Shown piece after piece: positions 40,715-64,000 of a DNA stretch of 64,000 nucleotides. The stretch spans positions 806,001 to 870,000 of the forward strand of contig NC_135244.1 of the NCBI RefSeq assembly GCF_947623445.1, in the 5' to 3' direction. Positions within the stretch are counted from its first letter, which is position 1; each line of letters starts with the position of its first letter. Both the position numbers and the translations under genes were made by a program. Origin of the DNA: Clavelina lepadiformis. Lineage: Eukaryota; Chordata; Ascidiacea; Aplousobranchia; Clavelinidae. Under the pieces are notes generated by a model. It searched no databases. It had not been told where the DNA came from and worked only from the letters and a program-made list of their open reading frames with translations.

Positions 40715-40757
40715 CCTGTGTGTGACCAATTTGCCTTTAAAAATTGTTAACTCGCTT

Positions 40758-40810
40758 TTTATGCGCGAGGCTATTATTGCCTAATTAGTGATTTCGTGAT
40801 GGTGACGTAG
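40758..40810 (+). promoter_or_regulatory. Conserved 5' module, unit A
   Basis: The segment contains GCGCGAGG, TAATTA (40782-40787), TGATTT and GTGACGTAG in fixed order and spacing. It is kept almost unchanged in all five complete 5' regions, about 400 bp upstream of the ATG, while nearby sequence has drifted. TAATTA is a classical homeodomain site core and GTGACGTAG is CRE-like. A promoter or 5' UTR role is inferred. Confidence 0.5.
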
Positions 40811-41206
40811 GAAGATTCCAATCTGTACTGGCGCAGGCTGCGGAGCGGTTTTCACAAGAAACAGTTTTCGTTTTGTTGTTTGCGTTTGAAGTTGTGTGAT
40901 GGTTTACAACCTTTAAATATTTGCAAAGTTTGAAAGTTGCAGAGCCAGACATAAATGAGGATGGGTTTGTCGACAAGTGCTGCAACGCAGGTGTTTGAAA
41001 TTTTGACTAGTTCTTTTGGATTTTATGATGTCATAATCAGATCTGAGCAGTAAACCTCACACCTCAACCTGTTGCTACAGATTTTATGTTTTGTTTAAGT
41101 TAAAGTTCTGACTGTGCCGAGACTGTTAAAAACCAAGATTTTACATAAAACGATTCGACATTTTCCCCCGGGAAAATTATTTTTAAGTTAGGCAGATATC
41201 TTAAAA

Positions 41207-43426
41207 ATGTGTAAGTATTTGTTGAAAATATTTGATGTTACTGGTTATTTAATATATTTGTTGTTGTTGTTCCTAAGATTCATTGGTGCTAGATGTTCGA
41301 ACACTAAATGAAAAATTGCACTATTCCTCCCTAACTCAGTTTTTCAACCTGTTAGAACTAACCATTGTGCTTTTTCACTTCAAAAAAATTTCAAGAAAAA
41401 TAAACTCCCAGCTTACAATATTCGACCTGTAGTAATATTATGATCCTTGATTAAAAGCTGTGTTTGATGTAAAAGGATAATTTTGCATTTATTTTAGCAG
41501 ATAGAAAGAAAAAGAAACACGATACAGGAACGGTTTTATCCAACGAACAAATCAAGATACTTGAGAATGAGTATCAACGCAGCAAATACATCAGCTTTGA
41601 TAGACAGAAAGAACTTGCTGAGGAATTCAATGTGAAAGTATATGTGATTACAGGATGGTTTCTTGAACGTCGTTCAAATGACCAATATCAAGCCAGAGAG
41701 AAAACTAAGCTACCGCCAAACTCAATTAACCTCAACGAAAACGCTTCTCCAAGCTCATCGTTGTTTACAACAGCGACACCTGTGGCAGGACTTCAGTCTG
41801 TCGACTCTAGTCCGACGTCTTACTTTCCATTCCACCATTACATGACGTTTCCAAGTCTAGATGGAGTTGGTCCGACAAGTGTGACGTCACAAGGAAACAG
41901 CTCAAGATCTGGCCAAGCTGCTGTTGCCGACACCACGCCGAGTATGTTATTGTGTAACAAAAATTTATTAAGAGATTTGCTATAAACCAACTGATATTTC
42001 TCGATCGTTTTTACTTCAGCAAGTAGTCAGCAAAACACAACAATCCAACATCAGTATTCGAATCAGCAGGGAGTCTTACGGAAGAAAGAAGTTCAACACC
42101 GCCCTGATTACAGCGACTTTGAAAAAAGAAAATCTGATATATTATCGCATTTGAACTCCTTCATTCTAAGGAACTTATAACTAAAAAGAAAGCAATAGAA
42201 GGAGAACACGTGTTGTACCACCGGCGATATCTTTGGATGTGTCTGTGTTACTTGACCGTTTTTAATTGTTTAGGATGAAGAGGTTTGAATCCAACCGACA
42301 TGAGCTTGAAACAAGCGACGCTGCCAATATTATGAAGCATACACAAGGAAGCTTCGACGAGCAGCATCGAATTCATTCCTCCTACCACGGTCAATCTTCG
42401 CATCAACGCCAGGTCAGTGATGACGCAGCAGCTTCATCGTCATATTCTGAAATGGCTTCGTTCACCAACTCTGCACCAGGTAAATATATTTGGCGATATT
42501 AAAGTAAGTTTTAAAATCCAGGTAATATTTTCCAGTTATTTTTCAGCTGAAGAAATTCCATTTGACTGTCGAGATCAGGATTTTACAATGAAGCAGTTGG
42601 ATTTTTTGGAGGATGAATTTGTTTACTGGGAAAGCCTCCAACCTTTGAGATTGTGGTACATTTCTTGTGCACTCAAAGTACCCGAATGGATGGTTGAACG
42701 GTGGTTTGAGATAAGACGCAAATCAATCAAACAGACATCAAAGAGAAAGTTTCCAACGTCTGCATCAAACACCCAGAGCACAGGTATGCCTCATGTACAT
42801 ACACCGTATATATGTATTGCAGTATAGGAACGTGTTGAATAATCCCGCCTCGTTGCATGAAGAACAGTAGTAGTAGTAGTAGTAGTAGTAGTCAAGACGT
42901 AGTCAGGATATTAATGAGATTTAATGACGTAACAATTTACTTCTTTTAATAATAACCAGGTAGACGTCTACTAGATTTAGAGGAGGAACCTAAAAAACCA
43001 TCCAGGAAGCGTTGGGCATATTCAGACGAACAGAATGCCGGATTGCAAGTAGCTTATGACGAAAGTCGCTTCCTTACTAACGAGAGAACAATTGCTCTGG
43101 CGATATATTTCGTAATACCTGTACGACGAGTGGAAAACTGGTTTCACAATCGTACCAGGACACGTCGAGGAGCTTACTTAAAGCAGAAGAGACTTGACAA
43201 AATACAACAAAATAAACAGAGTACTTCAAGCTCATCGTTGGCAGCATTACCGTCATCACACATCCACAGACAAGATCCATCTCAGCAAGATGGGAATGAG
43301 CTGGACTACCTCGATGGAAATTTGACTAAGAAAATCGACCAATCCAATGAATTGGCTCCACTTGACGTCTATGACGTGATCCATGTTTTAGGTGATCAGC
43401 AAGATGACGCCAATGAACCAATTTAA
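41207..43426 (+). CDS. Divergent triple-homeodomain protein, copy A
   Basis: The inferred exons are 41207-41210 (ATG+T), 41501-41941, one starting at 42020, 42274-42479, 42547-42783 and 42975-43426. Homeodomain 1 starts in exon 2 (YRKKKKHDTG ... ITGWFLERRSND), homeodomain 2 fills exon 5 (QLDFLEDEF ... VERWFEIRRKS), and homeodomain 3 opens the last exon (KPSRKRWAYSDEQNAGL ... VENWFHNRTRTRR). Each has exactly 37 residues from the helix-1 Gln to Trp48, as in canonical homeodomains. Residue 51 is Glu, Ile and Asn respectively. Linkers are Ser/Gln/Thr-rich. The protein ends VYDVIHVLGDQQDDANEPI, shared by the array. It is presumably a nuclear DNA-binding regulator. The exon coding EGQVNAEA... in copies D and E is missing, replaced by an AGT repeat, without loss of frame. 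The end of exon 3 is unresolved. AATAAA lies at 43609. No orthologous family recognised. Confidence 0.75.
42866..42892 (+). repeat. (AGT)n repeat replacing an exon in unit A
   Basis: About nine AGT triplets lie where units D and E carry an 81-bp exon. Unit C has the same replacement with four to five triplets (about 49456-49470). The array seeds it, since the lost exon ends with AGTAGTCAAG in unit E. Confidence 0.8.
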
Positions 43427-45105
43427 CAGAGCAAGTTGCCCCCCGGGTTTTCTTGTTATTCATTGTTTATCTTGGACGATCTTAATTGATTTTATGAAAG
43501 CTTGTTGCAACAAGATAATTTATAACCGCTGTAAAGAATTTTTATTTGGCAACGATTTTCTTTTGATTTTAGAGTTGGTTTTCTACGTTTTATATCCGTT
43601 TTCCGCAAAATAAAATACAAGCATCATCGTTAAATACTGGTGCAACTATTAACTGCTACAGAGACCTTGTCAAGGATTTCGATATTGATGAAAAAGTACT
43701 CTGGATTATACAAGATGCAATATTGTCAAGAAGAAACTATTAAAATCAACGTTGAAAGCAGTGATTTTGTCGAAATAAGAAGGTCGCAACTTGCTCGAAG
43801 ATTCCAGCAAAGGTTTTTGTTTCTGATTTCTATCTTTTTCTATTTCTATTTCTATCTTTCTTTCTGATTTCTATCAAGTAGATCCAGTTGCAAAAATAAA
43901 AACAATTTGCGTTGATCATTTTGGCTTTGAACGTGTAGTGAGTGACTGCTTACGTCGAATTTTAGATTCCTTCAGTTTATGTGAATGTACCGTAATAGAT
44001 AGTTCTTAAAATGTTTTGGCAATTATGATGGTGGGATACAAAATCTCATCTAAGTGACCAAGCTTATTTAGAATTAAATACAAATTGAGAAATGTTACTT
44101 TGAATTGTTTAAGATAGGCCTTCGGATGGGCCTACAGCCAATTAAGTGCAAAGGAGCTTGGACGAGAAAACTACTGTGTGCATCAGTTTGTATGTTTTTC
44201 CTGATATATTTTCTTAATATCATGGAAGTGAAGCCACGTTTAGACTTTACAATTTCAGTATTTTTATCCTCCAGAGGGCACCATTTGCAAAAGTACTGTG
44301 TTGGCTACATACATTTAAACAAATTGTTACCTTAATACATTCGCTCCATGTAGTAGCTTATTATTCAATAATTATTTGAAAACCGAGCATTAATGTTTAA
44401 CGTTTATTTCATTTTGCGTTAAAAATGTTTAAAATGAAACAACTAGCGCTAAAATCGACATGAATTCTTTGCAATATTACCTGTCAGAGTATATGACAAC
44501 AGAAACCAAACATTATTTGAAGCAATAAGCTTCCATAAAACAAACACAATTGCTCTAAAATAAACAATGTCACGCATTAATAAAAGTTTTAAAGCAACAC
44601 ATAATTTTATTTTTGCGTGTTACCGCCTTCATGATGATCATTTAAGTTAGCTATGGTGTCGTTATTTGGAGCCACAAAGCTATTAATTGCATGATAACAG
44701 TAGTCAACTTTTGACAATGACAACGTTATTGGACTTGAACTGCAACTCGAAGTGATGAAACAAGGAGCTTCTTTCTTGCATGCATGTCGGCGTCTTTAAT
44801 CCGGGCTTTATATTCTGATTTTCGTTCCGAAAACTCTGAAGTTTACAGTACCTCAAATTTCGGTTGAACAAAACGTTTGGATGCTTTAAGTTTCTTTGTG
44901 ATCCCTGTCAATCTGCAATGAAGGGAGAAGCAACAAATTGCATCTTTTAAAATCATCATTTTTTCCAATGAAAATTCTATCTAGTTTTCACATCTGGATC
45001 GAGTGCTTTTTGCTGAAAAATCCATGTTTTTAAAACTTAATTGGTTTTACAAAAACTTTTATTTCAACAATGCTAAATATGTCTACCTGCTGTAGTACAC
45101 ATAGA
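43427..45105. other. 3' flank of unit A and unique spacer
   Basis: The conserved 3' flank of unit A (to about 44600) has AATAAA at 43609-43614. About 500 bp without similarity to the other units follows (44600-45105). Short frames at 43640 and 44105 are not conserved between units. No gene is supported. Confidence 0.5.
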
Positions 45106-45498
45106 AGAAATGCCGGATTGCAAGTAGCTTATGATGAAAGTCGCTACCTTAGTAACGAGAGAACAATTGCTCTGGCGGTATTTTTCGTATTAGCTTTCCA
45201 TCGTGTACAAAACTGGTTTGGTTCTTGTACCAGGAGACGTCGAGCTGGCTTAAAGCAGAAAAGACACGAAGGAAACAAACAGAACCAACAGAGTACTTCA
45301 AGCTCATCGGTGGTAGCATTGACGTCATCACACATCCACGGGCAAGATCCGTCTCAGCATGATGGGAACGAACCGCAATACTTCGATGGAAATTTGATTA
45401 ACGAAAACGACCAATCCAATGAATTGGCTTCACTTGACGTCTATGACGTGATCCATGTCTTAGGTGATCAGCAAGATGACGCCAATGAGCCAATTTAA
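45106..45498 (+). pseudogene. Array unit B: 3' fragment of a triple-homeodomain gene
   Basis: Only the last exon survives, beginning inside homeodomain 3 (NAGLQVAYDESRYLSNERT) and reading cleanly to the shared C-terminus and TAA. The first 20 or so residues of that homeodomain, both other homeodomains and the 5' module are absent, and the upstream 500 bp is unrelated. Residue 51 is Ser (WFGSCTRRRR). It is a truncated duplicate. An upstream ATG (45070) would give a 142-aa frame but nothing suggests that it is expressed. Its 3' flank, with AATAAA at 45680, continues into unit C and is nearly identical to the C-D interval, so the truncation or duplication is fairly recent. Confidence 0.75.
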
Positions 45499-47045
45499 CA
45501 GAGCAAGTTGCCCACCGGTTTTCTTGTTATTTGTTGTTTATCTTGGACGATCTTAATTGATTTTATGAAAGCTGGTTGCAGCGAGATATTTTATAACCGC
45601 TTTAAAGATTTTTTATTTGACAACGATTTTCTTCTGATTTTAGAGTTGGTTTCCTACGTTTTATTGCCGTTAACCGCAAAATAAAATACAAGCATCATCG
45701 TTAAATCTTGTTTTAATTATCAAATGCTACAAAAATTAAAAAACGACAAGTAAGAGAATATTTTTTAATTGAAATATGTTTTCTCCAAAGTACGATTCAA
45801 TGCGTTTCTGCAAGACCTTTTCAAGGACATTGACGTCATACTGCAACTGTTAGAATCAACATTGAAAACAGTGATTTTGTCGAAATAAGAAGGGTGCGCA
45901 ACTTATTAAAAGACTCCAACAAATATATTTTTTTGAGCTGTATCAAGTAGATCCAGTTGGAAAAATAAAAACATTTTGCATTGATCATTTTGGCTTTAAG
46001 CGTGTAGTGAGTGACTGCTCTTATCGAATCTTAGATCCCTTCAGGTTATGTAAATGTAACGTAATAGATAGTTCTTATAAATTTTTTGGCAATTATTATG
46101 GTGGGATACAAAACTCATCTAAGTGACCAAGCTTGCTTAGAAGCAAATGCAAATTTAAAAATGTTACTTTGCATTGTTTAAGATAGGCCTTTGGATGGGC
46201 CTACAGCCAATTAACCATAAAAGAACTTGGACGAAAAAACTGCTGTGTGCATCATCTTTTATGTTCCTACTGATATAATTTCTTAATGTCATGGAAGTGA
46301 AATCACGTTAAGACTTTACGGTTGCAGTATTTTTATCCTCAAGAGAGCGCCATAATCAAAACTACTGTGTAGACTACATAAATTAAAACGCATTATTACC
46401 TTAATACAGTCGTTCCATGTAGTAGCTTATTATTCAATAATGAATTTCAACCGAGCAATAATGCTTAAAGTTTATTTCATTTTGCGTTAAAAATGTTTAA
46501 AATAAAATAACCAGCGCTAAAATCGAGGCGATTCCGAATTCCTATTCCTATTATATTCCGAATTCGAATTTCGAATGCGAATGCATTCGAATGCGAATTC
46601 CTATTACTTATTACCTTAATACAGTCGTTCAATGTAGTAGCTTATTATTCAATATTTATTTGCAACCGAGCATTAATGCTTAAAGTTTATTTCATTTTGC
46701 GTTAAAAATGTTTAAAATGAAACAGCTAGGGCTAAAATCGAGACAAATTCTGTGCAATATCATTTGTCATTATATAAGACGACTGAAACCAAATATTATT
46801 TGTTGCAATAACCTTCAATAAATCAAACACAATTGTTCTAAAATGAACAGTGATATGCATTAATAAAAAATTTTAAGGCATCTAGATATTCGGTGAAAAT
46901 ATTCCTTTTCTTTAAAACATATATTTTTCTGCAGAAACCATATCGCTTGAACCATTTAAAAGTCATTTCATGCTTTAAACAGTACTGGCTCCGTGCTTTG
47001 AATACATGATTTTGTTTCTGTTCATGGAACGTTTTTACAATCAAC
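45499..47045 (+). repeat. 3' flank of array unit B
   Basis: The flank is nearly identical to that following unit C (50002-51330). It differs by an AT-rich palindromic insert (46540-46605) made of GAATTC and GAATGC words, after which a block of about 130 bp that begins TACCTTAATACAGTCGTTC is repeated (46400-46530 and 46612-46740). No gene is seen. Confidence 0.65.
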
Positions 47046-47088
47046 CTGTGTGTGATCAATTTGCCTTTAAAAATTGTTAACTCACTTT

Positions 47089-47140
47089 TTATGCGCGAGG
47101 CTATTATTGCCTAATTAGTGATTTCGTGATGGTGACGTAG
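47089..47140 (+). promoter_or_regulatory. Conserved 5' module, unit C
   Basis: Same arrangement as in unit A, with TAATTA at 47112-47117, then TGATTT and GTGACGTAG. Confidence 0.5.
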
Positions 47141-47722
47141 GCAGAATCCATTTTGTGCTGGCGCAGGCTGCGGAGCGGTTGTGAAAAGAAATAGTTTCGT
47201 TTTGTTACTTGCGTTTGAAGTTGTGTGATGGTTTGGAACCTTTAGAAAGTTTGCAAAGTTTGAAACTTGCGGAGCCAGACATAAATGAGGATGGGTTTGT
47301 CGACAAGTGCTGCAACGCTGGTGCTTGAAATTTTGACTAGTTCTTTTAGATAAAAAGCAAGGCAATAAATCTTACAGTTTTGTGATGTCATAATAAGGTC
47401 GGAGCTATAAACCACACACCTCAATCTGTTGCTAAAAATTTTACTTTTTACTTACATACGTTTAAGGTTTGCTTGTGCTGAGAATGCTAGAGCTTTGTAA
47501 TTTTTTAATAAACTTTTACAATATTGCTTCTTTAGAAAACTGAGTTCATAATCATGTCTGATCATATTCAGCAACAAAACTAAACTCTATTTGTTGTAAC
47601 AGATGTTACTTAAGTTAAAGTTCTGACTGCGCCGAGTCTGTTAAAAATTAAGATTTTACGCAAAACGCTTCGTTATTTTCACCCTGAAACCTTGTTTTGA
47701 AGTTAAGGAAGAAATGATTAAG

Positions 47723-50001
47723 ATGTGTAAGTATTTGATGATATATTTGTTGTTGTTGCTCAGATGCATTGTTGCTAGATTTTCTAGCACTAATGGAAAA
47801 ATTGCACCGTTTCTCCCTAGCTAGTTGTCAGTTTCAACCTGTTAGAACTTACCAGTGTGCTTTTTCATTTCAACGAAACTCCAAAACAATAAAGCTTCCA
47901 GTTTACGATATTCATCTTGCAGAAATATTATGATCCTTGATTAAAAGCTGTGTTTGATGTCAAAGGATAATTTTACATTTATTTTAGCAGATCGAAGGAA
48001 AAAGAAATACGATACCGGAAAGGTTTTATCCAAGGAACAAATCAAGATACTTGAGATTGAGTATGAACGCAACCAATACATCAGCATAGATAGGCAAATA
48101 CAATTGGCTGAGGAATTCAATGTGGACTTACGTGATATCAGAGAATGGTTTCTTGATCGTCTCGCAAATGACGAGTATAAAGCCAGAGAAAAAGCTAAGC
48201 TACGACCAAACTCAAATAACCTCAGCGAATACGCTTCGTCAAGCTCATCGTTGTTTACAACAGCGAAACCTCTGCCAAGACTTCAGCCTCTTGACTTCAG
48301 TAGATTAACTGCAAGTCCTGCAGCACATGCGACTGACTCTGGCTTAAATGACTTCTACGATGATCTTCTCCAATATCCGCACGTGGGCGGGGGTTTACCG
48401 CATAACCTTTACTTGAAACCCCAGCATTACATGACGTTTCCAAGTCTCAATGGAGTTGGTTCGAAAATTATGACGTCACAAGGAAACAGCTCAAGATCTG
48501 GCCAAGCTGCTGTTGCCGACACCACGCCGAGTATGTAATTGTGTAACAAAAATTTATTAAGAGATTTGCTATAAACCAACTGATATTTCTCGATTGTTTT
48601 TACTTCAGCAAGTAGTCAGCAAAACACAACAATCCAACCTCAGTCTTCGAATCAGCAGAGAGTGTTGCGGAAGAAAGAAGTTCAACAAAGCCCTAATTAC
48701 AGCGACTTCGAAAAAAGAAAATCTGCTATATTATTGCATTTGAACTCCTTCACTTCAAAGAAACTTATAACTAAAAAGAAAACAATAGAAGGAGAACACA
48801 TGTTGTACCACCGGCAATATTTTTGGATATCTCTATGTTACTTGACCGTTTTTACTAGTTTAGGATGAAGAGGATTGAATCCAACCGACATGAGCTTGAA
48901 ACAAGCGACGCTGCCAATATTATGAAGCATACACAAGGAAGCTTCGACGAGCAGCATCGAGTTCATTCCTCCTACCACGGTCAATCTTCGCATCAACGCC
49001 AGGTTATTGATGACGCAGCAGCTTCATCGTCATATTCTGGCCTGGCTTCGTTCACCAACTCTGCACCAGGTAAATATATTTGGCGATGTTAAAATAAGTT
49101 GTAAATCCAGGTAATATTTTCCAGTTGTTTTTTAGCTGAAGAAATTACATTTGACTGTCGAGATCAGGATTTTACAATGAAGCAGCTGGAGTTGTTAGAG
49201 GACGAATTTGGTTACTTCGAAAGCCTCCTACCTTTGAGATTGTGGCACATTTCTTGTGCGCTCAAAGTACCCGAATGGATGGTTGAACGGTGGTTTGATA
49301 AAAGACGCAAATCAATGAAAGAGACAACAAAGAGAAAGTTTCCAACGTCTGCATCAAACACCCAGAGCACAAGTATGTCTCATGTACAATGCACCGAATG
49401 TATGTAGTGCTGTATAGGAACGTGTTGAATAATTCCGCCTCGTTGCATAAAGGACAGTAGTAGTAGTAGTCAAGACGCAGTCAGGGTATTATTGAGATTT
49501 AATGACGTAACAATTTACATGCTTTAATAATAACCGGGTAAACGTCTACTAGATTTAGCGGAGGAACCTAAAAAACCATCCAGGAAGCGTTGGGCATATT
49601 CAGACGAACAGAATGCCGGATTGCAAGTAGCTTATGATGAAAGTCGCTTCCTTACTAACGAGAGAACAATTGCTCTGGCGATACACTTCGTATTACCTTT
49701 CCATCGTGTAGAAAACTGGTTTCGTTCCTGTACCAGGAAACGTCGAGCTGGCTTAAAGCAGAAAATACACGAAGGAAACAAACAGAACCAACAGAGTACT
49801 TCAAGCTCATCGTTGGTAGCATTACCGTCATCACACATCCACAGACAAGATCCATTTCAACAAGATGGGAAAGAGCTGGACTACCTCGATGGAACTTTGA
49901 TTAACGAAATCGACCAATCCAATAAATTGGCTCCACTTGACGTCTATGACGTGATCCATGTCTTAGGTGATCGGCAGGATGACGCCAATGAGCCAATTTA
50001 A
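47723..50001 (+). CDS. Divergent triple-homeodomain protein, copy C
   Basis: The inferred exons are 47723-47726, 47991-48530, one starting at 48611, 48864-49069, 49136-49372 and 49553-50001. Exon 2 is the longest in the array, with an extra linker (DSGLNDFYDDLLQYPHVGGG) not seen in A, E or F. Homeodomain 1 ends REWFLDRLAND (residue 51 Asp), homeodomain 2 VERWFDKRRKS (Lys) and homeodomain 3 VENWFRSCTRKRR (Ser), so none keeps Asn51. Exon 3 stays open here to 48866, unlike in A, E and F, where it soon hits a stop, so its true end is uncertain. The exon equivalent to 57636-57716 is lost and replaced by AGT repeats, in phase. All other junctions keep phase. The C-terminal peptide is intact. This is one of the two most complete copies. 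AATAAA lies at 50182. Confidence 0.75.
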
Positions 50002-51330
50002 CATCGCAAGTTGCTCTCCGGTTTTCTTGTTATTCGTTGTTAATCTCGGGCGATCTTAATTGATTTTATGAAACTGGTTGCAGCGAGATATTTTATAACC
50101 GCTTTAAAGAGTTTTTATTTGACAACGATTTTCTTCTGATTTTAGAGTTGGTTTCTTACGTTTTATTGCCGTTAACCGCAAAATAAAATACAGGCCTCAA
50201 CGTTAAATCTTGTTTTAATTATCAGATGCTACAAAAATTAAAAAATGACAAGTAAGAGAATATTTTCTAACTGAAATATTTTTTCTCCAAAGTACGATTC
50301 AATGCGTTTCTGCAAGACCTTGTCAAGGACATTGACGTCATACTGCAACTGTTAGAATCAACATTGAAAACAGTGATTTTGTCGAAATAAGAAGGGTGCG
50401 CAACTTATTAAAAGACTCCAACAAATATATTTTTTTGAGCTGTATCAAGTAGATCCAGTTGGAAAAATAAAAACATTTTGCATTGATCATTTTGGCTTTA
50501 AACGTGTAGTGAGTGACTGCTCGTATCGACTTTTAGATCCCTTCTGGTTATGTGAATGTAACGTAATAGATAGTTCTTATAAATGTTTTGGCAATTATGA
50601 TGGTGGGATACAAAAACTCATCTAAGTGACCAAGCTTGCTTAGAAGCAAATGCAAATTTAAAAATGTTACTTTGCATTGTTTAAGATAGGCCTTTGGATG
50701 GGCCTACAGCCAATTAACCATAAAAGAACTTGGACGAAAAAACTGCTGTGTGCATCATCTTTTATGTTCCTACTGATATAATTTCTTAATGTCATGAAAG
50801 TGAAATCACGTTAAGACTTTACGGTTGCAGTATTTTTATCCTCAAGAGGGCGCCATAATCAAAACTACTGTGTAGACTACATAAATTAAAACGCATTATT
50901 ACCTTAATACAGTCGTTCCATGTAGTAGCTTATTATTCAATAATGAATTTCAACCGAGCAATAATGCTTAAAGTTTATTTCATTTTGCGTTAAAAATGTT
51001 TAAAATGAAACAGCTAGCGCTAAAATCGAGACAAATTCTGTGCAATATCATTTGTCATTATATAAGACGACTGAAACCAAATATTATTTGTTGCAATAAC
51101 CTTCAATAAATCCAACACAATTGTTCTAAAATGAACAGTGATATGCATTAATAAAAAATTTTAAGGCATCTAGATATTCGTTGAAAATATTCCTTTACTT
51201 TAAAAAATATATTTTTCTGCAGAAACCATATCGCTTGAACCATTTAAAAGTCATTTCATGCTTTAAACAGTGCTGGCTCCGTGCTTTGAATACATGATTT
51301 TGTTTCTGTTCATGGAACGTTTTTTCAATC
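50002..51330. other. Flank between array copies C and D
   Basis: This conserved non-coding flank has AATAAA at 50182-50187 and a conserved leader-like segment. Minus-strand frames in the 5' modules recur in all units but change frame and length from copy to copy, so I do not call them genes. Confidence 0.5.
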
Positions 51331-51375
51331 TTCCTGTGTGTGATCAATTTGCCTTTAAAAATTGTTAACTCACTT

Positions 51376-52007: not shown

Positions 52008-53908
52008 ATGTGTAAGTATTTGATGATACATTTGTTGTTGTTGCTAAGATGCATTGTTGATAGATTTTCTAGTACTAATGGAAAAATTGCACCGTTTTTC
52101 CCTAGCTAGTTGTCAGTTTCAACCTGTTAGAACTTACCAGTGTGCTTTTTCACTTCAACTGAACTCCAAGACAATAAAGCCCCTAGCTTACGATTTTCAT
52201 CTTGCAGAAATATTATGATCCTTGATTAAAACCTGTGTTTGATGTCAAAGGATAAATTTACATTTGTTTTAGCAGATAGAAAGAAAAAGAAAAACGATAC
52301 CGGAACGGTTTTGTCCAAGGAACAATTCAATACACTTGAGAGTGAACATGAACGCAACCGATTCATCGACACCACGCTGAGTATGTAAATGTATAACAAA
52401 AATATATTGAAAGATTTGTTATAAACCAACTGATATTTCTCGATTGTTTTTACTTTAGCAAGTGACCAGCAAAACACAACAATCCAACCTCAGTCTTCGA
52501 ATCAGCAGGGAGTGTTGTTGAAGAAAGAAGTCCAACACCGCCCTGATTACAGCGACTTTGAAAATAGAAAATCTGAAATATTATGGCATTTGAACTCTTT
52601 CACTTCAAAGGAGCTTATAACTAAAAAGAAAGCAATAGAAGGAGAACACGAGTTGTACCATCGGCGATATTTTTGGATGTGTCTGTCTTACTTGACCGTT
52701 TTTAACTGTTTAGGATGAAGAGGTTTGAATCTAACCGACATGAGCCTGAAACAAGCGACGTTGCCAATATTATGAAGCATTGGCAAGGAAGCTTCGACGA
52801 GCAGCATCGAATTCATTCCTCCTACCAAGGTCAATCTTCGCATCAACGCCTGGTTAGTGATGACGCAGCAGCTTCATCGTCATATTCTGACATGGCTTCG
52901 CTCACCAACTCTGCACCAGGTAAATTTATTTGGCGATATTAAAACAAGTTTTAAAATCCAGGTAATATGTTTCAATTGCTTTTCAGCTGAAGAAAGTCCA
53001 TTTGACTGCCAAGATAAAATCGATTTTACAATGAAGCAGCTGAACTTTTTAGAGGATGAATTTGGTTACTCCGAAAGCCTCAAACGTTTGAGATTGTAGT
53101 ACATTTCTTATGCGCTCAATGTACCCGAATGGATGGTTGAACGGTGGTTTGAGATAAGACGCAAATCAATCAAAAAGACAAAAAAGAGAAAGTTTCCAAC
53201 GTTTGCATCAAACACCCAGAGCACCGGTATGTCTCATGCACATGCACCGTATGTATGTATTGCTGTATTGGAACGTGTTGAATAATCCTGCCTCGTTGCA
53301 TGAAGGACAAGTCAACGCGGAAGCAGCAAACTCGCTGCCATCAACAAGCAGCGCAAGTTCTGAACAACTTGCAGAATGTAGTCAAGGTAATATTTTTGAG
53401 ATTTAATGACGTGACAATATACATGTTTTAATAATAACCGGGTAAACGTCTACTAGATTTAGAAGAGGAACCTGAAAAACCATCCAGGAAACGTTGGGCG
53501 TATTCAGAAGAACAGAATGCCGGATTGCAAGTAGCTTATGACGAAAGTCGCTACCTTAGTAACGAAAGAGCAATTGCTCTGGGGATACACTTCGTATTAC
53601 CTTTCCATCATGTACAAAACTGGTTTAATTCCTGTACCAGGAGACGTCGAAGAGATCGTTTAAAGCAAAAGAGACATGAAGGAAACAAACAGAACCAACA
53701 GAGTACTTCAAGCTCATCGGTGGTAGCATTACCGCCATCACTCATCCACAGGCAAGATGCATCTCAGCTAGATGGAAACGAGCCGCACTATCTCGATGGA
53801 AAGTTGATTAACAAAATCGACCAATCGAATGAATTGGCTCCACTTGACGTTAGTGACGTAATTTATGTCTTAGGCGATCAGCAAGATGACACCAATGAGC
53901 TAATTTAA
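52008..53908 (+). pseudogene. Triple-homeodomain gene copy D, damaged
   Basis: The exons correspond to 52008-52011, 52276-52380, one starting 52459, 52714-52919, 52987-53226, 53306-53386 and 53457-53908. Exon 2 has lost 435 nt relative to copy C, exactly 145 codons, removing helices 2 and 3 of homeodomain 1 and the whole linker while keeping frame. Homeodomain 2 has a stop at 53097 where the other copies have Trp (TAG for TGG). Homeodomain 3 (VQNWFNSCTRRRR, residue 51 Ser) and the C-terminal tail remain open. The 81-bp exon 6 is present and in phase. It is probably a pseudogene. A product ending in homeodomain 2 would have no complete homeodomain. AATAAA lies at 54090. Confidence 0.75.
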
Positions 53909-55624: not shown

Positions 55625-55678
55625 TTTTGTGCGCGAGGCTGTTATTGCCTAATTAGTGATTTCTTGATGGTGACGTAG
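55625..55678 (+). promoter_or_regulatory. Conserved 5' module, unit E
   Basis: Same arrangement as in unit A, with TAATTA at 55650-55655. Nearby sequence has small deletions but the module is kept. Confidence 0.5.
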
Positions 55679-56067
55679 GCACTGGCGCAGGCAGCGGAGC
55701 GGTTGTGAAAAGAAACAGTTTTGTTGTTGTTGTTTGCGTTTGAAGTTGTGTGATGGTTTGCATCCTTTAGAAAGTTTGAAACTTGCGGAGCCAGACATGA
55801 ATGACGATTGGTTTGTCGGCAAGTGCGGAAACCTGGTGCTTGAAATTTTCACTAGTTCTTTTAGATACAAAACAATGCCAGTTTTCTGATGTAATAATCA
55901 GATCCCAGTAGTAAACCACACACCTCGACCTATAGTTACAGATTTTATGTTTTGTTTAAGTTAAAGTTATAACTGTGCCGAGACTGTTGAAAATCAAGAT
56001 TTTACATAAAACCTTTCGACATTTTCTACGAGGAAACTTATTTTTAAATTTTGGCGGCAATTTTAAA

Positions 56068-58016
56068 ATGTGTAAGTATTTGTTGAAAATATTTGATGAT
56101 GAATATTTTGTTGTTGTTGTCCTTAAGATGCATTGGTTCGAATACTAATTGCGAAATTGCACTATTCGTCTCCAGCTAACTCAGCTTTGCAACCAGTTAG
56201 AACTAATCATTGTGCTTTTTCACTTTAACAAAAGTTTAAGACGAAGAATCTCCCAGCTTACAATATTTGACCGGTAAAATTATTATTATCCTTGATTAAA
56301 ACCTGTGTTTGATTTCAAAGGATAATTTTACATTTATTTTAGCAGATGAAAAGAAAACGAAACACGATACCAGACCGTTTTTATCCAAGGAACAAATCAA
56401 TATACTTGAGATTGAATATCAACGCAGCAAATGCATCAGCTTTGATAGACAGAAACAAATTGCTGAGGAATTTCAAGTGAAATTATCTGCGATTACAGGA
56501 TGGTTTCTTGAACGTCACTTAATAGACGAATATAAAGCCAGAGAGAAAACTAAGCTACCGCCAAACTCAATTAACCTCAGCGAAAACGCTTCGTCAAGCT
56601 CATCGTTGCTTACGCGAGCGACATCTCAGCATAACATGACGTTTCCAAGTCTTGTTGGAGTTGGTGCGACAAGTGTGACGTCACAAGGAAACAGCTCAAG
56701 ATCTGGCCAAGCTGCTGTTACCGACCCCACGCTGAGTATGCTATTGTTAATATAAACAAATACAGTAAAACGTTTTTAGATAAACAGACTGACATTTCTC
56801 GATTGTTTTTACTTTAGCAAGTGACCAGCAAAACACAACAATCCAATTCCACACTTCGAATACGCAAGGAGTGTTGCGGAAGAAAATATTCTACCACTGC
56901 CCTCAAAGCTGCATCCCCGAAAATAAAAAGTTTGTTATAACATCGCATTTGACCTCCTTAACTCAAAGGAACTTATAACTAACAAGAAAGCAATAGAAGG
57001 AGAACACTTGTGTGGTATCATCGGCGATATCTTTGGATGTATCTATGTTACTTGGCCGTTTTTAATTGTTTAGGATGAAGAGGTTTGAATCTAACCGACA
57101 TGAGCCTGAAACAAGCGGCGCTGCCAATATTATGAAGCATACACAAGGAAGCGGTCAATCTTCGCATCAACGCCAGGTCAATGATGACGCAGCAGCTTCA
57201 TCGTCATATTCTACCCTGGCTTCGTTCACCAACTCTGCACCAGGTAAATATATTTGGCGATGTTAAAATAAGTTGTAAAATCCAGGTAATATGTTCCAAT
57301 TGCTTTTCAGCTGAAGAAAGTCTTTTTGACTGCCAAGATCAGATCGATTTTACGTTGAGGCAGCTGGATTTTTTGGAGGACGAGTTTGCTTACAATCAAA
57401 AGCTCGATCTTTCCACAGGTAGATTGGCGTACCTTACAAGTGCACTCAGAGCACCCCCAGGCAAGATTGAACGGTGGTTTGAGAATAAACACAAATCAAT
57501 CAAAAAGAAAAAAAAGGGAAAGTTTTCAACGTCTGCATCAAACACCCAAAACACCGGTATGTCTCATGCACATGCACCGTATGTTTGTAGTGCAGTATGG
57601 GAACGTGTTGAATAATCCCGCCTCGTTGCATGAAGGACAAGTCAACGCGGAAGCAGCAACCTCGCTGCCATCAACAAGCAGCGCAAGTTCTGAACAACCT
57701 GCAGAAAGTAGTCAAGGTATTATTTTTGAGATTTAATGACGTGACAATATACATGTTTTAATAATAACCGGGTAAACGTCTACTAGATTTGGAGGAGGAA
57801 TCTAAAAAATCAACTCGAAGCCGTTATGCGTTTTCAAAAGAACAAGAGGCCGGATTGCTAGTAGCTTATAATGAAAATCCCTACCTCAACAACAAAAGAT
57901 CTCTTGCTTTGTCTTTGGGATTGCAAATACCTTTCCATCGTATAAGTGGTTGGTTTCATAACCATACAAGAAGACATAAATCTCTGAAGAGACATGAAGA
58001 AAAAACAACAAAATAA
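56068..58016 (+). CDS. Divergent triple-homeodomain protein, copy E (short tail)
   Basis: The exons are 56068-56071, 56346-56735, one starting 56818, 57074-57243, 57311-57556, 57636-57716 and 57787-58016, in phase except for the unresolved exon 3 end. Homeodomain 1 ends ITGWFLERHLID (residue 51 Glu). Homeodomain 2 (QLDFLEDEFAYNQKLDLSTG ... IERWFENKHKS) carries Asn51 and is slightly longer between helices than in other copies. Homeodomain 3 (EQEAGLLVAYNENPYL ... ISGWFHNHTRRHK) also has Asn51. The frame stops at 58014 right after homeodomain 3. The conserved acidic tail survives in another frame (58037-58225), so the protein has lost about 60 C-terminal residues through a shift. Exon 4 lacks 13 codons, as in copy F. 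AATAAA lies at 58403. Its Asn51 residues suggest that it is closest to an ancestral DNA-binding form. Confidence 0.7.
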
Positions 58017-58551
58017 GCAGTACTTCAAGCTCTGGGTTGGTAGCATTGACATCATCACATTTCCACAGGCAAGAACCGTCTCAGCAAGATGGGAACGCGC
58101 CGGACTACTTCGATGGAAGTTTGATTAACGAAAACGACCAATCCAATGAATTGGCTTCACTTGACGTCAGTGAAGTCATCCATGTCTTAGGCGATCAGCA
58201 AGATGACGCCAATGAACCAAACTAACATCGCATGTTGCCCCCCGGTTTTCTTGTTATTCGTTGTTTATCTTGGACGGTCTTAATTGATTTTATGGAAGAT
58301 TATTGCAACGAAATATTTTATAACCGCTTTAAAGAGATTTTATTTGGCAACGATTTATTTTGATTTTTGTGTTTTTTTACGTTTTAATGCCGTTTACCGC
58401 AAAATAAAATACAAGCATTGTCGCTAAATACTGTTATAACTATCAGCTGCTACAAAGACCTTGTCAAGGATTTTGATATTGATGAAAAAGTTCTCTGGAT
58501 TATACAAGATGCAATATTGTCAAGAAGCAACTGTTAAAATCAACATTGAAA

Positions 58552-60534
58552 GCGACGTCTTACATCGCTACCCCTAGGGCCTAATTGGTATATAGCATCT
58601 CGAGTTTATTTTCTGATTGTGTGAAGACGGTGGAATCTGTGTTGGTGTGGTGTTGCGCTAGGCTGGTAAGTGTTGGGCGAGTGTTGAATTGAGTCTACGT
58701 TTGGAGTTTTTAGAAGAAAGATGGTTGTTTTTATCTAAGAAATGCTCATAAAAGTTAGTAAAGCAAGAGGAGCTAATTGACTAGCTGTAAAGCGGGAAGT
58801 TTCCTGGCTGAGAAAAAGTGTGGTTACAAGTTGACTGCCAACAACGACCAAATCAAGAAAGTCGACTAATTCGGAAGTTATTTCACCTGCAAAGGGAAAT
58901 GTAATAATGGAATGAAACGGTTGTAACAACTGTCTTGTGATGCATTTTAAAATCTCCGCGCAATTCTTGCAAATCGAAATTTAGCTCTGAAAATGCGACA
59001 TAGCTCCCGCAATGTTATGTCATATCTGTTTTTATATGGTTTTGAAAGTTGAACATTGAACAAGCAAACTGCTAAAGGAATAAAGGCATTCTAAATGTGG
59101 TCCAGTGGATGATGCAGATGGGGTGACAGTGTTACTATAATTATGAAGTTCTTTAAAGGGCGAAAACTACAAAATCGCTTTGAAATAAAATGCATAAGGG
59201 ACAACTCAGTCTCATTGGACACATCACAAGAAAGGTGAGGTTGGATCTATGGTATTTTAGGTAGCGATACAAAAGTTAAGGTTCCCGCTGAAAGTTTGAT
59301 GGAAACGTTCACAGATCGCTCACCTGTGAGAAAGATGATTTGTCAAAGTTCGCCAAACGAATGAGATACCGTGGCAAAATAATATTTCGCACTGTTGTTT
59401 ATTTGTATTTTGTGTGTTTTCCTCGCTTGATTTATTTTGTTAGTGTTGTATCACCCTGACTTCTTTTGTCCACTGTCTTATTTGATTTTGTTCTTTTTGG
59501 CGCTTCATTGGTTTGATGTGGTCGAACGCGTAATCAATGCCTGTCTTTTTCCGATTGGTGTCCCGCATTTGCTTCAGGCGTGAGTAGTTGCCTTCCTGAA
59601 AAAAGTAGTGGCCTTTTAATTCAGTGTACGTTTGAGTGTTCAGAGCGAGGACCTGTCATTTTTTTGATCTCTCGGATCTGCTGTTGGTGTTTTTTGTTAC
59701 ACTTTATTAACTTATTTTACATGTGTGTTTGTAACTTTAAGCTCCAAACGGAGATGAATTTTAAATCTCTCATGAGAATGCAATCAACCTGCTGTGCACA
59801 ACGTTCGTTGGTTTTGAGGGGCCCGTGAAAGCGGTAGAAAACGTACCTGGCAGAGGAAAATCTGTAAAAACACCTCCCAGAAGATGACAATATACTTCTT
59901 CTCTAAAGTATGGTTTAACCGAGTTTCTGTTAAGAAATCTCTCTCATGCATCAATCGCAAATTATTAGAGCTTTAGACTTTTCCTTTTTAAAGAACTGCT
60001 GATAAAAAAATGTTTTAATTGTTTAATAAAATATTTTACTTGTTTTGAACTGTTGCAAAACTTGATCTTTGCTGTTTTAAAGGAGCTTAGAAAACATTTT
60101 TAAATGAAAACAAATCTGCCACCTAAGCGTGCTTAAGACGTTAAAATCAACCAATTATTGTTGTTAAAGGAGCTTTCCCTTGTTGATTGTACCCTGGTTT
60201 TGCTAAAACACTCAACCACCAACTGACGCTTCAACAATGAGTTTAAAGCAACACTGCGTCCTCGTTTTCTGCATTAGTAAATAAAGTTTTTTAATTTCGC
60301 AATTTTGCGGGATTGCTTTGCAATACAGAAGCTCTCGCTCATTTTCCAATAATTTAAATTATCTTTTTTCTTATCTATGCCAGTCATCTACACTGATTGA
60401 AAATTATAGAACACATTAAATTTTTACACCCACATAACCCTCATACCTCGGTGAAAAAGATGACCGACTTATGTCAAGTAAATTTGATGAACCTCTCTAT
60501 GCTTCATTCTACTATTTGTACGGTATTTAGAGAA
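58552..60534. other. Non-array insertion in unit E (about 2 kb)
   Basis: This sequence interrupts the conserved 3' flank of unit E and has no counterpart in the other units. I see no terminal inverted repeats, no target duplication and no reading frame with a recognisable domain (short frames at 58735-58929 minus and 59580-59828 plus). It could be an old mobile element, filler from a rearrangement, or original sequence lost elsewhere. Confidence 0.5.
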
Positions 60535-60755
60535 TGTCGAAACAGCGGAACTTGTTCAAAGACTCCAACAAATGTTTTTTTTTTCTGATCTGAATGAAGT
60601 AGATCCAGTTGCAAAAAATAAAACATTTTGCATTAATCATTTTGGCTTTAAACGTGTAGTGAGTGACTGCTCATATCGACTTTTAGATTCCTTCTGGTTA
60701 TGTGAATGTGACGTGATAGATAGTTCTTAACATGTTTTGGCAAATATGATGGTGG

Positions 60756-61210
60756 GTTGGAAATTTGTAGAAAATGGAACTCCGCGGACTTCCCCATTGT
60801 TGTCAAGCATTCCCAATTGTAAGCTTCGAGATTTCCAGCACCAGATTTAAGTTGATGTTGTCTGAACCGTTTTAACCAAAATTTAATGTAAAATAAGAAA
60901 CAGAATATACTTTAGTTTGGCACGTTTTAAGTTTCACAGTTCACCTGAAGAAGCAAGCTAATGCTTGCGAAAGCTCGTGTCGAAAAGTATAAAGTTAACC
61001 TTAAGAGTGCCAGATTTAAGTTGTTTGATTTTATGGTGTCAAAAACGCTAATTTAGAGATTGCTTCTTACAGGCGGCGAAGAAACTTCGGGAAGTGAAAC
61101 AGCACATCACAGGGCGGACGCATTTGCTCATTTCATTCATTGAAAGAACCCTGTAGTTGGGTGACCTGTTTGAAGAACAGATTAAGAACATTTGCAATAA
61201 AAATCTGTGC
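60756..61210. other. Second non-array segment in unit E, with hairpin
   Basis: About 455 bp replaces roughly 120 bp of the usual flank. It contains a perfect 6-bp hairpin, GCAAGC-TAAT-GCTTGC at 60953-60968, set between GAAGAA and GAAAGCTCG. No coding frame is seen. Confidence 0.5.
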
Positions 61211-61882
61211 AACAGCTTAACCATAAAGAAACTTGAGTAAGACAGCTGTTCTGTTCATCATCTTGTATGTTCTTGCTGATATATTTTCTTAATGTCATGG
61301 AATTGAAATCACTTTTAAACTTTACCGTTTCAGTATTGTCATCCTCAAGAGGGCGCCATAATCAAAACTACTGTGTAGACTACATAAAATGAAACGCATT
61401 ATTACCTTAATACAGTCGTTCAATTTAGTAGCTAATTATTCAATAATTATTTGCAACCGAGCAATAAACTTTAAAATTTATTTTATTTTGCGTTAAAAAT
61501 GTTTAGAATGAAACAACCAGCGCTAAAATCGAGGCAAATTCTGTGCAATGTCATTTGTCAGATCAGAGTATATGACAACAGAAACCAAATATTATTTGTT
61601 GCAATAACCTTCAATAAAACAAACATAATTGTTCTAAAAATGAACAATGATATTCATTAATAAAAATTTCAAGGCATCTAGAAATTCGGTGAAAATATTC
61701 CTTTACTTTAAAACTTATATTTTTCTACAGGAACCATATCGTTTAAAACATTTAGAAATCATTTCATGCTTTAAACAGTCCTTGCTCCGTGCTTTGAAAA
61801 CATGATTTTGTTTCTGTGCATGGAACGTTTTTGCAATATTCCTGTGTGTGATCAATTTACCTTTAAAAATTGTTAACTCACT

Positions 61883-61936
61883 TTTTATGCGCGAGGTTAT
61901 TATTGCCTAATTAGTGATTTCGTGATGGTGACGTAG
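61883..61936 (+). promoter_or_regulatory. Conserved 5' module, unit F
   Basis: Same arrangement as in unit A, with TAATTA at 61908-61913. Confidence 0.5.
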
Positions 61937-62508
61937 CCAAATTCCATTTTGTGTTGGCACAGGCTGCGGAGCGGTTGTGAAAAGAAACAGTTTCGTTAGT
62001 GTTTTTTTTCGCTTGCAATTGTGTGATGGTTTGGAACTTTTAGAAAGTTTGCAAAGTTTCAGTGCCAGACATAAATGAGGTTGGGTTTGTCGACAAGTGC
62101 TGCAACGCTGGTGCTTGAATGTTTGACAAGCTCTTTTTGTTAAGAAGGAGAACAATAAATCTGACAGTTTTGTGATGTCATAATCAGGTCGGAGCAGTAA
62201 ATCACAACCTCAACCTGTTGCTAAAGATTTTACTTTTTACTTACAGACGTTTAAGGTTTGCTTGTGCTGAAAATGTTAAAGCCATGAAACTTTTATCAAA
62301 ATTTTACATTATTGTTTCTTTAGAAAACTAAGTTCATAATCAGGTTTGATCAGACTCAGCAACAAAAATAAACTCTATTTGTTGTAACAAATGTTACTTA
62401 AGTTAAAGTTCTGACTGCGCCGAGTCAGTTAAAAATTAAGACTTTACGCAAATTGTTTCGTTATTTTCCCACTGAAAGCTTGTTTTGAAGTTGGAAGAAA
62501 TCATTAAA

Positions 62509-64000
62509 ATGTGTAAGTATTTGATGATATATTTGTTGTTGTTGCTAAGATGCATTGGTGCTAGATTTTCTAGCACTAATGGAAAAAATGCACCATTTGT
62601 TCCCAGCTTTCAGTTTCAAACTATTAGAACTAACCATTGTGCTTTTTCATTTTAACGGATCTCCTTTAAATTATGCTCCCAACTTACGATATTCCTGTTG
62701 CAGAAATATTATGATCCTAGATTAAAACCTGTGTTTGATGTCAAAGGATAATTTTACATTTATTTTAGCAGATAAAATGGAAACGGAACAAGAAACCAGA
62801 ACGGTTTTATCCCACGAACAAATCAAGATACTTGAGATTGAGTATGAACGCAACCCATTCATCACCATTGGTAGACAGAAACAAATTGCTGAGGAATTCA
62901 ATGTGGACATAATTGTTATTAGAAGATGGTTCCTTGAACGTCGTTCAAATGACCAATATCAAGTTAGAGAGAAAACTGAGCTAGGGCCAAACTCAATTAA
63001 CCTCAACGAAAACGCTTCGTCAAGCTCATCGTTGTTTACAACAGCGACACCTGTGGCAGGACTTCAGTCTGTCGACTCTAGTCCGACGTCTTACTTTCCA
63101 TCCCACCATTACATGACGTTTCCAAGTCTCGATGGAGTTGGTCCGACAAATGTGACGTCACAAGGAAACAGCTTAAGATCTGGCCAAGCTGCTGTTGCCG
63201 ACACCACGCCGAGTATGTAATTGTGTAACAAAAATTTATTAAGAGATTTGCTATAAACCAACTGATATTTCTCGATTGTTTTTACTTCAGCAAGTAGTCA
63301 GCAAAACACAACAATCCAACCTCAGTATTCGAATCAGCAGAGAGTGTTGCGGAAGAAAGAAGTTCAACACCGCCCTCATTACAGCGACTTTGAAAATAGA
63401 AAATCTCTTATATTATGGCATTTGAACTCCTTCATTCAAAGGAACTTATAACTAAAAAGAAAGCAATAGAAGGAGAACACGTGTTCTACCACAGGCGATA
63501 TCTTTGGATGTGTCTGTGTTACTTGACCGTTTTTAATTGTTTAGGATGAAGAGGTTTGAAACCAACCGACATGAGCCTGAAACAAGCGGCGCTGCCAATA
63601 TTATGAAGCATACACAAGGAAGCGGTCAATCTTCGCATCAACGCCAGGTTATTGATGACGCAGCAGCTTCATCGTCATATTCTGAAACGGCTTCGTTCAC
63701 CAACTCTGCACCAGGTAAATATATTTAGCGATATTAAAATAAGTTTTAAAATCAAGGTAATATTTTTCCATTCCTTTTCAGCTGAAGGAAGTCCATTTGA
63801 TTGCCAAGATAAAATCGATTTTACTATGAAGCAGCTGAACTTTTTGGAGGACGAATTTGTTTACTGCGACAGTCTCCAATCTTTGAGATTGTGGTACATT
63901 TCTTGTGCACTCAAAGTATCCGAAACGAAGGTTGAACGGTGGTTTGAGATAAGACGCAAATCAATCAAAAAGAAAAAAAAGAGAAAGTTTCCAACGTCTG
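62509..64000 (+). CDS. Divergent triple-homeodomain protein, copy F (partial)
   Basis: The exons visible are 62509-62512 (ATG+T), 62772-63212, one starting 63291, 63545-63714 and 63782 to the window edge. Homeodomain 1 (VLSHEQIKILEIEYERN ... IRRWFLERRSND) has Glu at 51. Homeodomain 2 (VERWFEIRRKS) has Ile. The exon 2 linker (GLQSVDSSPTSYFPSHHYM) is almost the same as in copy A. Exon 4 has the 13-codon deletion shared with copy E. No stop is seen apart from the exon 3 problem common to A and E. Homeodomain 3 should lie just beyond the window. Confidence 0.7.

What the first reader, a model, noticed from the sequence alone, without database searches (positions are those of the whole stretch)
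40715..64000. Tandem array of divergent triple-homeodomain genes
Six units in the same orientation, mostly 4.3 kb apart, each full unit encode three different homeodomains in separate exons, each with the exact 37-residue spacing from the helix-1 Gln to Trp48. Multi-homeodomain proteins are few (DUX with two, ZHX/HOMEZ and ZFHX with more), and this exon layout, linkers and tail match none that I know. The array pattern recalls mammalian DUX4 clusters, by analogy and not homology. It may be a lineage-specific, fast-evolving regulator family.
Basis: partly seen in the sequence, partly recalled or inferred. Interest (0 to 1): 0.92.

Follow-up and report, generated by a model that had tools for sequence, protein, structure and literature searches.

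The report
Sea-squirt paired divergent homeobox gene array
A sea squirt carries a tandem cluster of unusual homeobox genes, apparently packed as single-homeodomain and double-homeodomain gene pairs, in which most copies have lost the amino acid normally used to read DNA, so it may be a fast-evolving, lineage-specific gene-regulator family.

Summary
The homeodomains are real. The window is chromosome 5 of the ascidian Clavelina lepadiformis. The array runs past the window: seven units carry HD1, HD2 and HD3 exons (one broken), plus an HD3-only relic; more divergent homeobox genes follow to C5:924 kb, and a second cluster lies at 1.20-1.25 Mb. 'Triple-homeodomain gene' is not the best reading. 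Of 12 public gene models with array exons, 10 are split into a single-HD gene (exons 1-3) or a double-HD gene starting at its own ATG one base after a splice acceptor. The two coding regions are 94-96 bp apart in five units and overlap as ATGA in two, under the 100-bp limit used to define Ciona operons. The genome carries the Ciona spliced leader in a 745-bp tandem array with a splice donor. Coding indels keep the frame (9 of 9, against 7 of 55 noncoding). Amino-acid change runs near the noncoding rate, except in a constrained C-terminus (omega 0.23). Asn51 is kept in 4 of 33 scorable domains at this locus. No convincing relative outside Clavelina was found. Best reading: lineage-specific dicistronic homeobox pairs, a new variant of known homeobox expansions. 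Trans-splicing, DNA binding and regulatory role are inferred, not shown.

The parts
41207..42180 (+). Unit 1, HD1 gene: exon 1 ATGT at 41207, exon 2 (HD1) 41498-41941, exon 3 from 42020 to the stop at 42178-42180; public model LOC143460071 (P0008)
42274..43426 (+). Unit 1, double-HD gene: acceptor then ATG at 42275, exon 4 42274-42479, exon 5 (HD2) 42547-42783, exon 7 (HD3 and tail) to 43426; exon 6 lost; public model LOC143460070 (P0005)
45034..45498 (+). HD3-only relic copy (open frame 45034-45498; similarity to exon 7 starts near 45103)
47723..48868 (+). Unit 2, HD1 gene: exon 1 ATGT at 47723, exon 2 47988-48530, exon 3 from 48609; the open frame runs to a TGA at 48866-48868 that overlaps the next ATG; public model LOC143460972 (P0009)
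48864..50001 (+). Unit 2, double-HD gene: exon 4 48864-49069, exon 5 49136-49372, exon 7 49559-50001; exon 6 lost
52008..53908 (+). Unit 3, broken: HD1 mostly deleted, TAG in HD2; exon 7 open; public model LOC143460977 isoform X3 (P0012)
56068..56978 (+). Unit 4, HD1 gene: exon 1 ATGT at 56068, exon 2 56343-56735, exon 3 from 56818 to stop 56976-56978
57074..58016 (+). Unit 4, double-HD gene with a short last exon: exon 4 57074-57243, exon 5 57311-57556, exon 6 57636-57716, exon 7 57793-58016; a three-HD public model (LOC143458760, P0002) covers unit 4 and takes its last exon from unit 5
62509..63451 (+). Unit 5, HD1 gene: exon 1 ATGT at 62509, exon 2 62769-63212, exon 3 from 63291 to stop 63449-63451; public model LOC143458691 (P0007)
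63545..64000 (+). Unit 5, double-HD gene, runs off the window: exon 4 63545-63714, exon 5 from 63782, last exon ends at C5:870703
42259..42280 (+). Trans-splice-like acceptor and start of the downstream gene in unit 1 (TTTTTAATTGTTTAG|GATGAAG); the TTTAG|GATG core is kept in 7 of 7 units

Best explanation
Each array unit is a pair of tightly abutted homeobox genes: an upstream single-homeodomain gene (HD1; exons 1-3) and a downstream double-homeodomain gene (HD2 and HD3; exons 4-7) that begins at an ATG one base after a conserved splice acceptor. The pair is most likely transcribed together as a tunicate-type dicistronic operon, with the second message released by spliced-leader trans-splicing at that acceptor. 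The products are probably nuclear regulators: HD3 (Asn51 kept in 3 of 8 copies) would make what canonical DNA contact remains, HD1 and HD2 (Asn51 in 1 of 13) would give altered DNA contacts or protein contacts, and the constrained C-terminus (...VYDVIHVLGDQQDDANEPI) would be the effector surface. The family spread and diversified in the Clavelina lineage by unequal exchange. Shown here: homeodomain identity, the close pairing, coding constraint, loss of Asn51, a spliced leader in the genome. Inferred: co-transcription, trans-splicing at this acceptor, DNA binding, effector role.
For: Public models end and restart between exons 3 and 4 in 10 of 12 cases; unit 1 has two separate gene numbers, LOC143460071 and LOC143460070. 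Stop-to-ATG gap is 94-96 bp in 5 of 7 units and an ATGA overlap in 2 of 7, under the 100-bp limit that Satou et al. 2008 used to define Ciona operons (PMC2760879, passages). The TTTAG|GATG site is kept in 7 of 7 units, while the spacer before it has 1-, 1- and 2-base gaps and no splice donor shared by all units in a phase that fits exon 4. The Ciona leader (recalled) occurs 905 + 766 times with at most 1 mismatch, against 4 + 4 for the reversed pattern, and in a 745-bp array on chromosome 6 it is followed by GTAAGT. An HD1-like gene stands alone at C5:890.9-891.4 kb. Frame kept in 9 of 9 coding gaps against 7 of 55 noncoding, p 4e-7. C-terminal 28 codons omega 0.23 (bootstrap 0.06-0.77). Asn51 counts. 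Mosaic exon trees.
Against: Two models cross exons 3 and 4: P0002 (unit 4, donor present only there) and P0012 (unit 3, which needs a non-GT donor), so at least some predicted transcripts are joined. No RNA reads were seen, so co-transcription and leader addition are untested. In units 2 and 3 the upstream stop lies beyond the acceptor, so an upstream message cut at that site would lack its stop. No canonical poly(A) signal was noted by eye between exons 3 and 4. Asn51 loss may mean little DNA binding at all. dN is near noncoding divergence.
Confidence: 0.58

Rival explanations
1. Two neighbouring genes with separate promoters: the same HD1 and double-HD genes, but the downstream one starts from its own transcription start (with or without an unseen 5' exon), not from an operon.
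For: Separate gene numbers in the public annotation. Nothing here shows co-transcription.
Against: The space between the coding regions is under 100 bp in 7 of 7 units, and the ATG follows a splice acceptor by one base, which leaves little room for a promoter and leader exon unless they overlap the upstream gene.
Confidence: 0.18
2. True triple-homeodomain genes: exons 1-7 are cis-spliced into one protein of about 500 residues.
For: Exons 2, 5 and 6 have lengths that are multiples of three where measured, with phase-1 ends; P0002 is annotated with three HDs; P0012 joins exons 3 and 4.
Against: Exon 4 begins in phase 2 and no conserved donor in that phase is found in exon 3 across units. P0002 takes its last exon from unit 5. 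In 5 of 7 units the exon 3 frame stops 94-96 bp before exon 4. 10 of 12 public models are split.
Confidence: 0.13
3. A decaying or nearly neutral array: tandem duplicates with little function, drifting towards pseudogenes.
For: Pooled dN (0.156 exon 2, 0.134 exon 5, 0.171 exon 7) is near noncoding divergence (0.10-0.25). Unit 3 is broken, unit 4 shortened, one copy is a relic. Asn51 is lost in most copies.
Against: Frames are kept through 9 of 9 coding gaps (unit 3 exon 2, unit 4 exon 7, exons 3 and 6 and the relic left out). About 7-8 stop-making changes are possible per 100 amino-acid-changing ones, yet 6 of 7 copies keep HD1 and 6 of 7 keep HD2 open. The C-terminus is constrained. Splice sites and the exon-4 ATG are conserved.
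Confidence: 0.1

Closest known systems
DUX family of mammals (DUX4 in D4Z4 arrays; DUXA, DUXB)
   Same: Two homeodomains in one protein (the double-HD gene), tandem arrays of a few kb, fast evolution; a C-terminal effector region is proposed here by analogy (recalled for DUX4).
   Different: Intron-containing DUXA has an intron inside each homeobox and DUX4 array copies lack introns (PMC2211742, passages); here each homeodomain lies in one exon and introns are kept. No sequence affinity to DUX beyond the homeodomain was seen (DUX4 E 0.36 or weaker in a PDB search). Asn51 is mostly lost here, and a single-HD gene is coupled upstream.
Ciona operons resolved by spliced-leader trans-splicing
   Same: Same strand, coding regions under 100 bp apart, downstream ATG just behind a splice acceptor, leader present in the genome (PMC2760879 passages).
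   Different: Here the pair is a lineage-specific, tandemly amplified homeobox pair; leader addition and joint transcription are not shown.
Lineage-specific homeobox expansions (for example lepidopteran Shx, PMC4207634, listing and start of abstract only; mammalian Argfx/Leutx/Dprx/Tprx, PMC4904359, likewise)
   Same: Local duplication and rapid divergence of homeobox genes in one clade.
   Different: Those are single-homeodomain genes (recalled); here single- and double-HD genes are coupled, and the residue at position 51 is mostly changed.
ZHX/HOMEZ and ZFHX multi-homeodomain proteins
   Same: Several homeodomains in one protein (only unit 4's public model has three).
   Different: Pfam found homeodomains and nothing else in P0001, P0002, P0005 and P0009 at E 0.01: no zinc finger.

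Membership tests
Homeodomain superfamily (PF00046) | Profile score over the curated cut-off | tested here: met
   7 of 10 exon ORFs over cut-off, 2 below, 1 (half domain) without a match; whole proteins P0001, P0002, P0005, P0009 at 29.9-51.1 bits. Unit 1 HD2 alone is below cut-off.
Homeodomain superfamily (PF00046) | Core residues L16, F/Y20, W48, F49 | tested here: met
   Kept in the complete scorable copies of the array except unit 4 HD2, whose 2-residue insertion shifts the register.
Canonical DNA-reading homeodomains | Asn51 (near-invariance recalled) | tested here: not met
   HD1 0 of 6, HD2 1 of 7, HD3 3 of 8; 12 neighbouring domains 0 of 12; total 4 of 33 at C5:847-924 kb; 4 of 8 in the 1.2-Mb cluster. 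The 8 best-scoring domains elsewhere in the genome: 8 of 8 (a biased sample).
DUX | Two homeodomains in one protein | tested here: met
   Double-HD public models P0001, P0003-P0006; 2 stretches by Pfam in P0001 and P0005. Holds for the downstream gene only.
DUX | Intron inside each homeobox in intron-containing members (DUXA) | tested here: not met
   Each homeodomain lies in one open exon; DUXA description from passages of PMC2211742.
DUX | Sequence affinity to DUX homeodomains | tested here: inconclusive
Ciona-type operon | Same-strand genes with under 100 bp between them | tested here: met
   Coding regions 94-96 bp apart or overlapping in 7 of 7 units; definition from passages of PMC2760879. 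True transcript ends are not known.
Ciona-type operon | Spliced-leader system in the organism | tested here: met
   Ciona leader with GTAAGT donor in a 745-bp tandem array on chromosome 6; sequence presence only, no RNA evidence.
Ciona-type operon | Leader on the downstream message; joint transcript | not testable with these tools
   No RNA reads held.
ZHX/HOMEZ or ZFHX | Zinc fingers together with homeodomains | tested here: not met
   Only PF00046 in P0001, P0002, P0005 and P0009 at E up to 0.01.

The most novel reading that the evidence does not exclude
A chordate lineage has built a large cluster of homeodomains that dropped Asn51 and re-diversified their base-facing residues, packaged as dicistronic spliced-leader operons, with a neighbour tied physically to the transcription machinery (a homeodomain-MED31 fusion about 40 kb past the last array unit). 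It would be a homeodomain counterpart of other rapidly evolving DNA-recognition arrays, perhaps reading lineage-specific repeats or acting in the early embryo.
Probability: 0.25. Interest if true: 0.85.

Novelty: new variant of a known kind. Interest (0 to 1): 0.66.

Why it matters
Homeodomains are among the most conserved DNA readers in animals, and Asn51 is almost fixed in them (recalled). A locus where 29 of 33 scorable domains lack it while reading frames and splice sites are kept makes it testable whether a homeodomain can read DNA another way or has become a protein-binding module. If the pairs are operons, this would be a case of homeobox genes amplified as dicistronic units in a chordate. 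If the double-HD gene acts in early embryos, it would be a convergent counterpart of DUX in the sister group of vertebrates.

Tried and rejected
One gene with exons 1-7: rejected as the general case because the exon 3 to exon 4 join has no donor conserved in phase and most public models split there. A start at the in-frame ATG before HD1 (MSKDN in unit 2): rejected because unit 1 has TAA two codons into it; exon 1 is ATGT|GTAAGT in 7 of 7 units. Assignment of HD1, HD2 or HD3 to a homeodomain class: no clear nearest class. The FastTree of 47 local domains groups each type by position and puts the 891-kb gene with HD1, but deeper nodes are not usable. Structure of the double-HD protein: low confidence, not used.

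Positive selection: exon 2 M0 omega 1.26 and M2a over M1a 2dlnL 9.85; exon 5 M0 0.73 and 2dlnL 9.85 (own Python implementation, 6 and 7 sequences; not run on exons 4, 6 or 7). HD2 turn and helix 3 gave omega 6.1, but with dS only 0.023. I do not rely on these: dN is near noncoding divergence, and units are mosaics (unit 6 exon 2 groups with unit 2, its exons 5 and 7 with unit 5), which can inflate such tests.

Paper searches for a description of this locus or family (I saw listings and starts of abstracts) showed none among the papers listed; lists were capped and many journals are not held. I recalled a homeobox amplification in Oikopleura; one search listed no paper on it. Asn51 near-invariance was sought in PMC4901127 by term and not found; the one passage shown names L16, F20, W48 and F49. 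It stands as recalled. Rfam found nothing in the window and only a below-threshold match in the leader array.
Full report
Where it is. G000 has 209,060,895 bases in 95 contigs and the window is C5:806001-870000. Contig C5 is 24,617,235 bp. The published Clavelina lepadiformis assembly is 210.1 Mb, mostly in 9 chromosomes, with chromosome 5 at 24.62 Mb (PMC10884593, parts 1 and 2 of 3 of the main text read), and proteins from a contig of exactly that length are named Clavelina lepadiformis.

What is there. A homeodomain HMM seeded partly with these sequences, and independently Pfam, find the three domain types. Seven units carry HD1-HD2-HD3 exons between C5:847.2 and 884.7 kb; five begin in the window. 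Unit 3 has lost most of HD1 and has a stop in HD2; unit 4 has a short last exon; one extra copy at window 45.1 kb is HD3 only. The whole-genome search reports 116 PF00046 matches (150 of 192 candidates scored). By my count from that table 24 lie in C5:847-924 kb and 8 in C5:1.20-1.25 Mb, so the array is part of a larger divergent homeobox region. Protein searches of the genome with P0009 and P0001 found the units and neighbouring fragments on C5 and nothing elsewhere (24 and 28 matches, all on C5).

Gene anatomy. Exon 1 ends ATGT|GTAAGT in 7 of 7 units. Exon 2 holds HD1, and its length is a multiple of three in the six units measured (unit 3 not measured). Exon 4 begins TTTAG|GATG in 7 of 7, exon 5 holds HD2, exon 6 is absent in units 1 and 2, and exon 7 holds HD3 and the tail. 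The exon 3 frame stops 94-96 bp before the exon-4 ATG in units 1, 4, 5, 6 and 7, and overlaps it as ATGA in units 2 and 3. Public models mostly end and restart here: of the 12 that carry array exons, 5 are HD1-only (P0007-P0011; P0011 with HD1 mostly deleted), 5 are double-HD-only (P0001, P0003-P0006), one joins three HDs but takes its last exon from the next unit (P0002), and one comes from the broken unit and joins exons 3 and 4 (P0012). A thirteenth hit, P0013, holds only a tail fragment. Three of the names carry isoform labels, which usually reflects RNA evidence in such annotation (recalled; not checked).

Operon reading. Satou et al. 2008 (PMC2760879, passages read) define candidate Ciona operons as same-strand pairs under 100 bp apart, find them directly abutted, and warn that general pipelines often fuse them wrongly. 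All seven units meet the distance test, measured between coding regions. On chromosome 6 it recurs every 745 bp, and in the stretch fetched it is followed by GTAAGT, as expected of leader genes. One match on chromosome 1 lies upstream of what looks by eye like a retroelement coding region (not tested), as if a trans-spliced message had been copied back. Leader addition at exon 4 itself is inferred. Against it: two models cross the junction, and in units 2 and 3 the upstream stop lies beyond the acceptor.

Is it coding, and how does it evolve. Distinct gaps among units are multiples of three in 9 of 9 coding cases and 7 of 55 noncoding cases (Fisher p 4e-7; exons 2, 4, 5 and 7 counted; unit 3 exon 2, unit 4 exon 7, exons 3 and 6 and the relic left out). 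Pooled dN/dS is 1.17 (exon 2), 1.79 (exon 4), 0.67 (exon 5), 0.60 (exon 6) and 0.63 (exon 7, relic included). Within exon 7 the homeodomain part is at 0.75 (bootstrap 0.53-1.10) and the last 28 codons at 0.23 (0.06-0.77). Noncoding divergence of 0.10-0.25 is close to dN, so weak constraint explains most of the change. Site models favour a class above one in exons 2 and 5, but units are mosaics and I treat this as a hint only.

What the domains may do. Position 51 is E or D in 6 of 6 scorable HD1 copies, I or K in 6 of 7 HD2 copies (N in one), and N, S or T in HD3 (N in 3 of 8). In all, 4 of 33 scorable domains at C5:847-924 kb keep Asn51 (all four in the array, 0 of 12 neighbours), against 4 of 8 in the 1.2-Mb cluster and 8 of 8 of the best-scoring homeodomains elsewhere (a biased comparison). 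HD1 is still predicted to fold as a homeodomain. So the fold seems kept while the usual base contact is gone in most copies. The most likely division of labour is HD3 for what DNA contact remains, HD1 and HD2 for altered or protein contacts, and the C-terminus as effector. This is inference.

Relatives and novelty. The two searches with array sequences found only Clavelina proteins, and the search with five neighbours found three Clavelina proteins and then a gap of more than 45 orders of magnitude in E-value. Each search scored only candidates sharing five-residue words, within a length window. An HD1-like gene stands alone at C5:890.9-891.4 kb, which suggests that the HD1 gene is older than the pairing or has also been copied alone. 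The papers listed showed no description of this locus. I rate it a new variant of the known kind 'lineage-specific homeobox expansion', with an operon-like pairing and mass loss of Asn51 as the unusual features.

Noticed in passing
C5:923126-924332, minus strand (L015), outside the window: A homeodomain fused in frame to Mediator subunit MED31: one open exon holds the homeodomain and the start of MED31, and a second exon completes MED31. The near-identical public protein P0015 scores 46.2 bits for PF00046 and 129.5 bits for PF05669.
   Followed up: partly
C5:919.6-936.7 kb: All 8 MED31 exon matches found in the genome lie here, readable as four copies of a gene that is usually single-copy (recalled), interleaved with divergent homeodomain exons. 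A second homeodomain exon lies just upstream of the 920-kb MED31 copy, but the splice phases did not obviously fit.
   Followed up: partly
chromosome 6, C6:12139467-12206206 and possibly beyond (L029 holds two units): A 745-bp tandem array carries the exact Ciona spliced-leader sequence followed by GTAAGT, the likely leader-RNA genes of Clavelina.
   Followed up: partly
L025 position 1501: A leader copy without a splice donor sits upstream of what looks by eye like a retroelement coding region, perhaps a reverse-transcribed trans-spliced message.
   Followed up: no
C5:1200381-1252211 (L019-L024): A second cluster of divergent homeodomain exons, 9 by my HMM; one, at 1235338, is in a 1589-residue open frame whose printed part is made of repeats of about 20 residues.
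   Followed up: no
C5:905015-906615, minus strand (L013): Three homeodomain exons in a row on the minus strand, each a different divergent domain: a possible true multi-homeodomain gene.
   Followed up: no
C5:886374-887169, minus strand (L011): An inverted fragment of the HD1 gene tail; a Clavelina protein (P0013) from a 5.68-Mb contig matches it, and other proteins from that contig are array copies that differ from this assembly.
   Followed up: no
window 35834-37207, minus strand: An open frame of 458 residues with a NACHT domain (PF05729, E 9.7e-21), an NLR-like gene.
   Followed up: partly
window about 40708-41100 and repeats near 47.0, 51.3, 55.6 and 61.8 kb: The upstream flank of the units is itself a well-kept repeat with similar antisense open frames in at least four copies; the 700 bases before exon 1 differ by only 0.146 per site on pooled average.
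   Followed up: no
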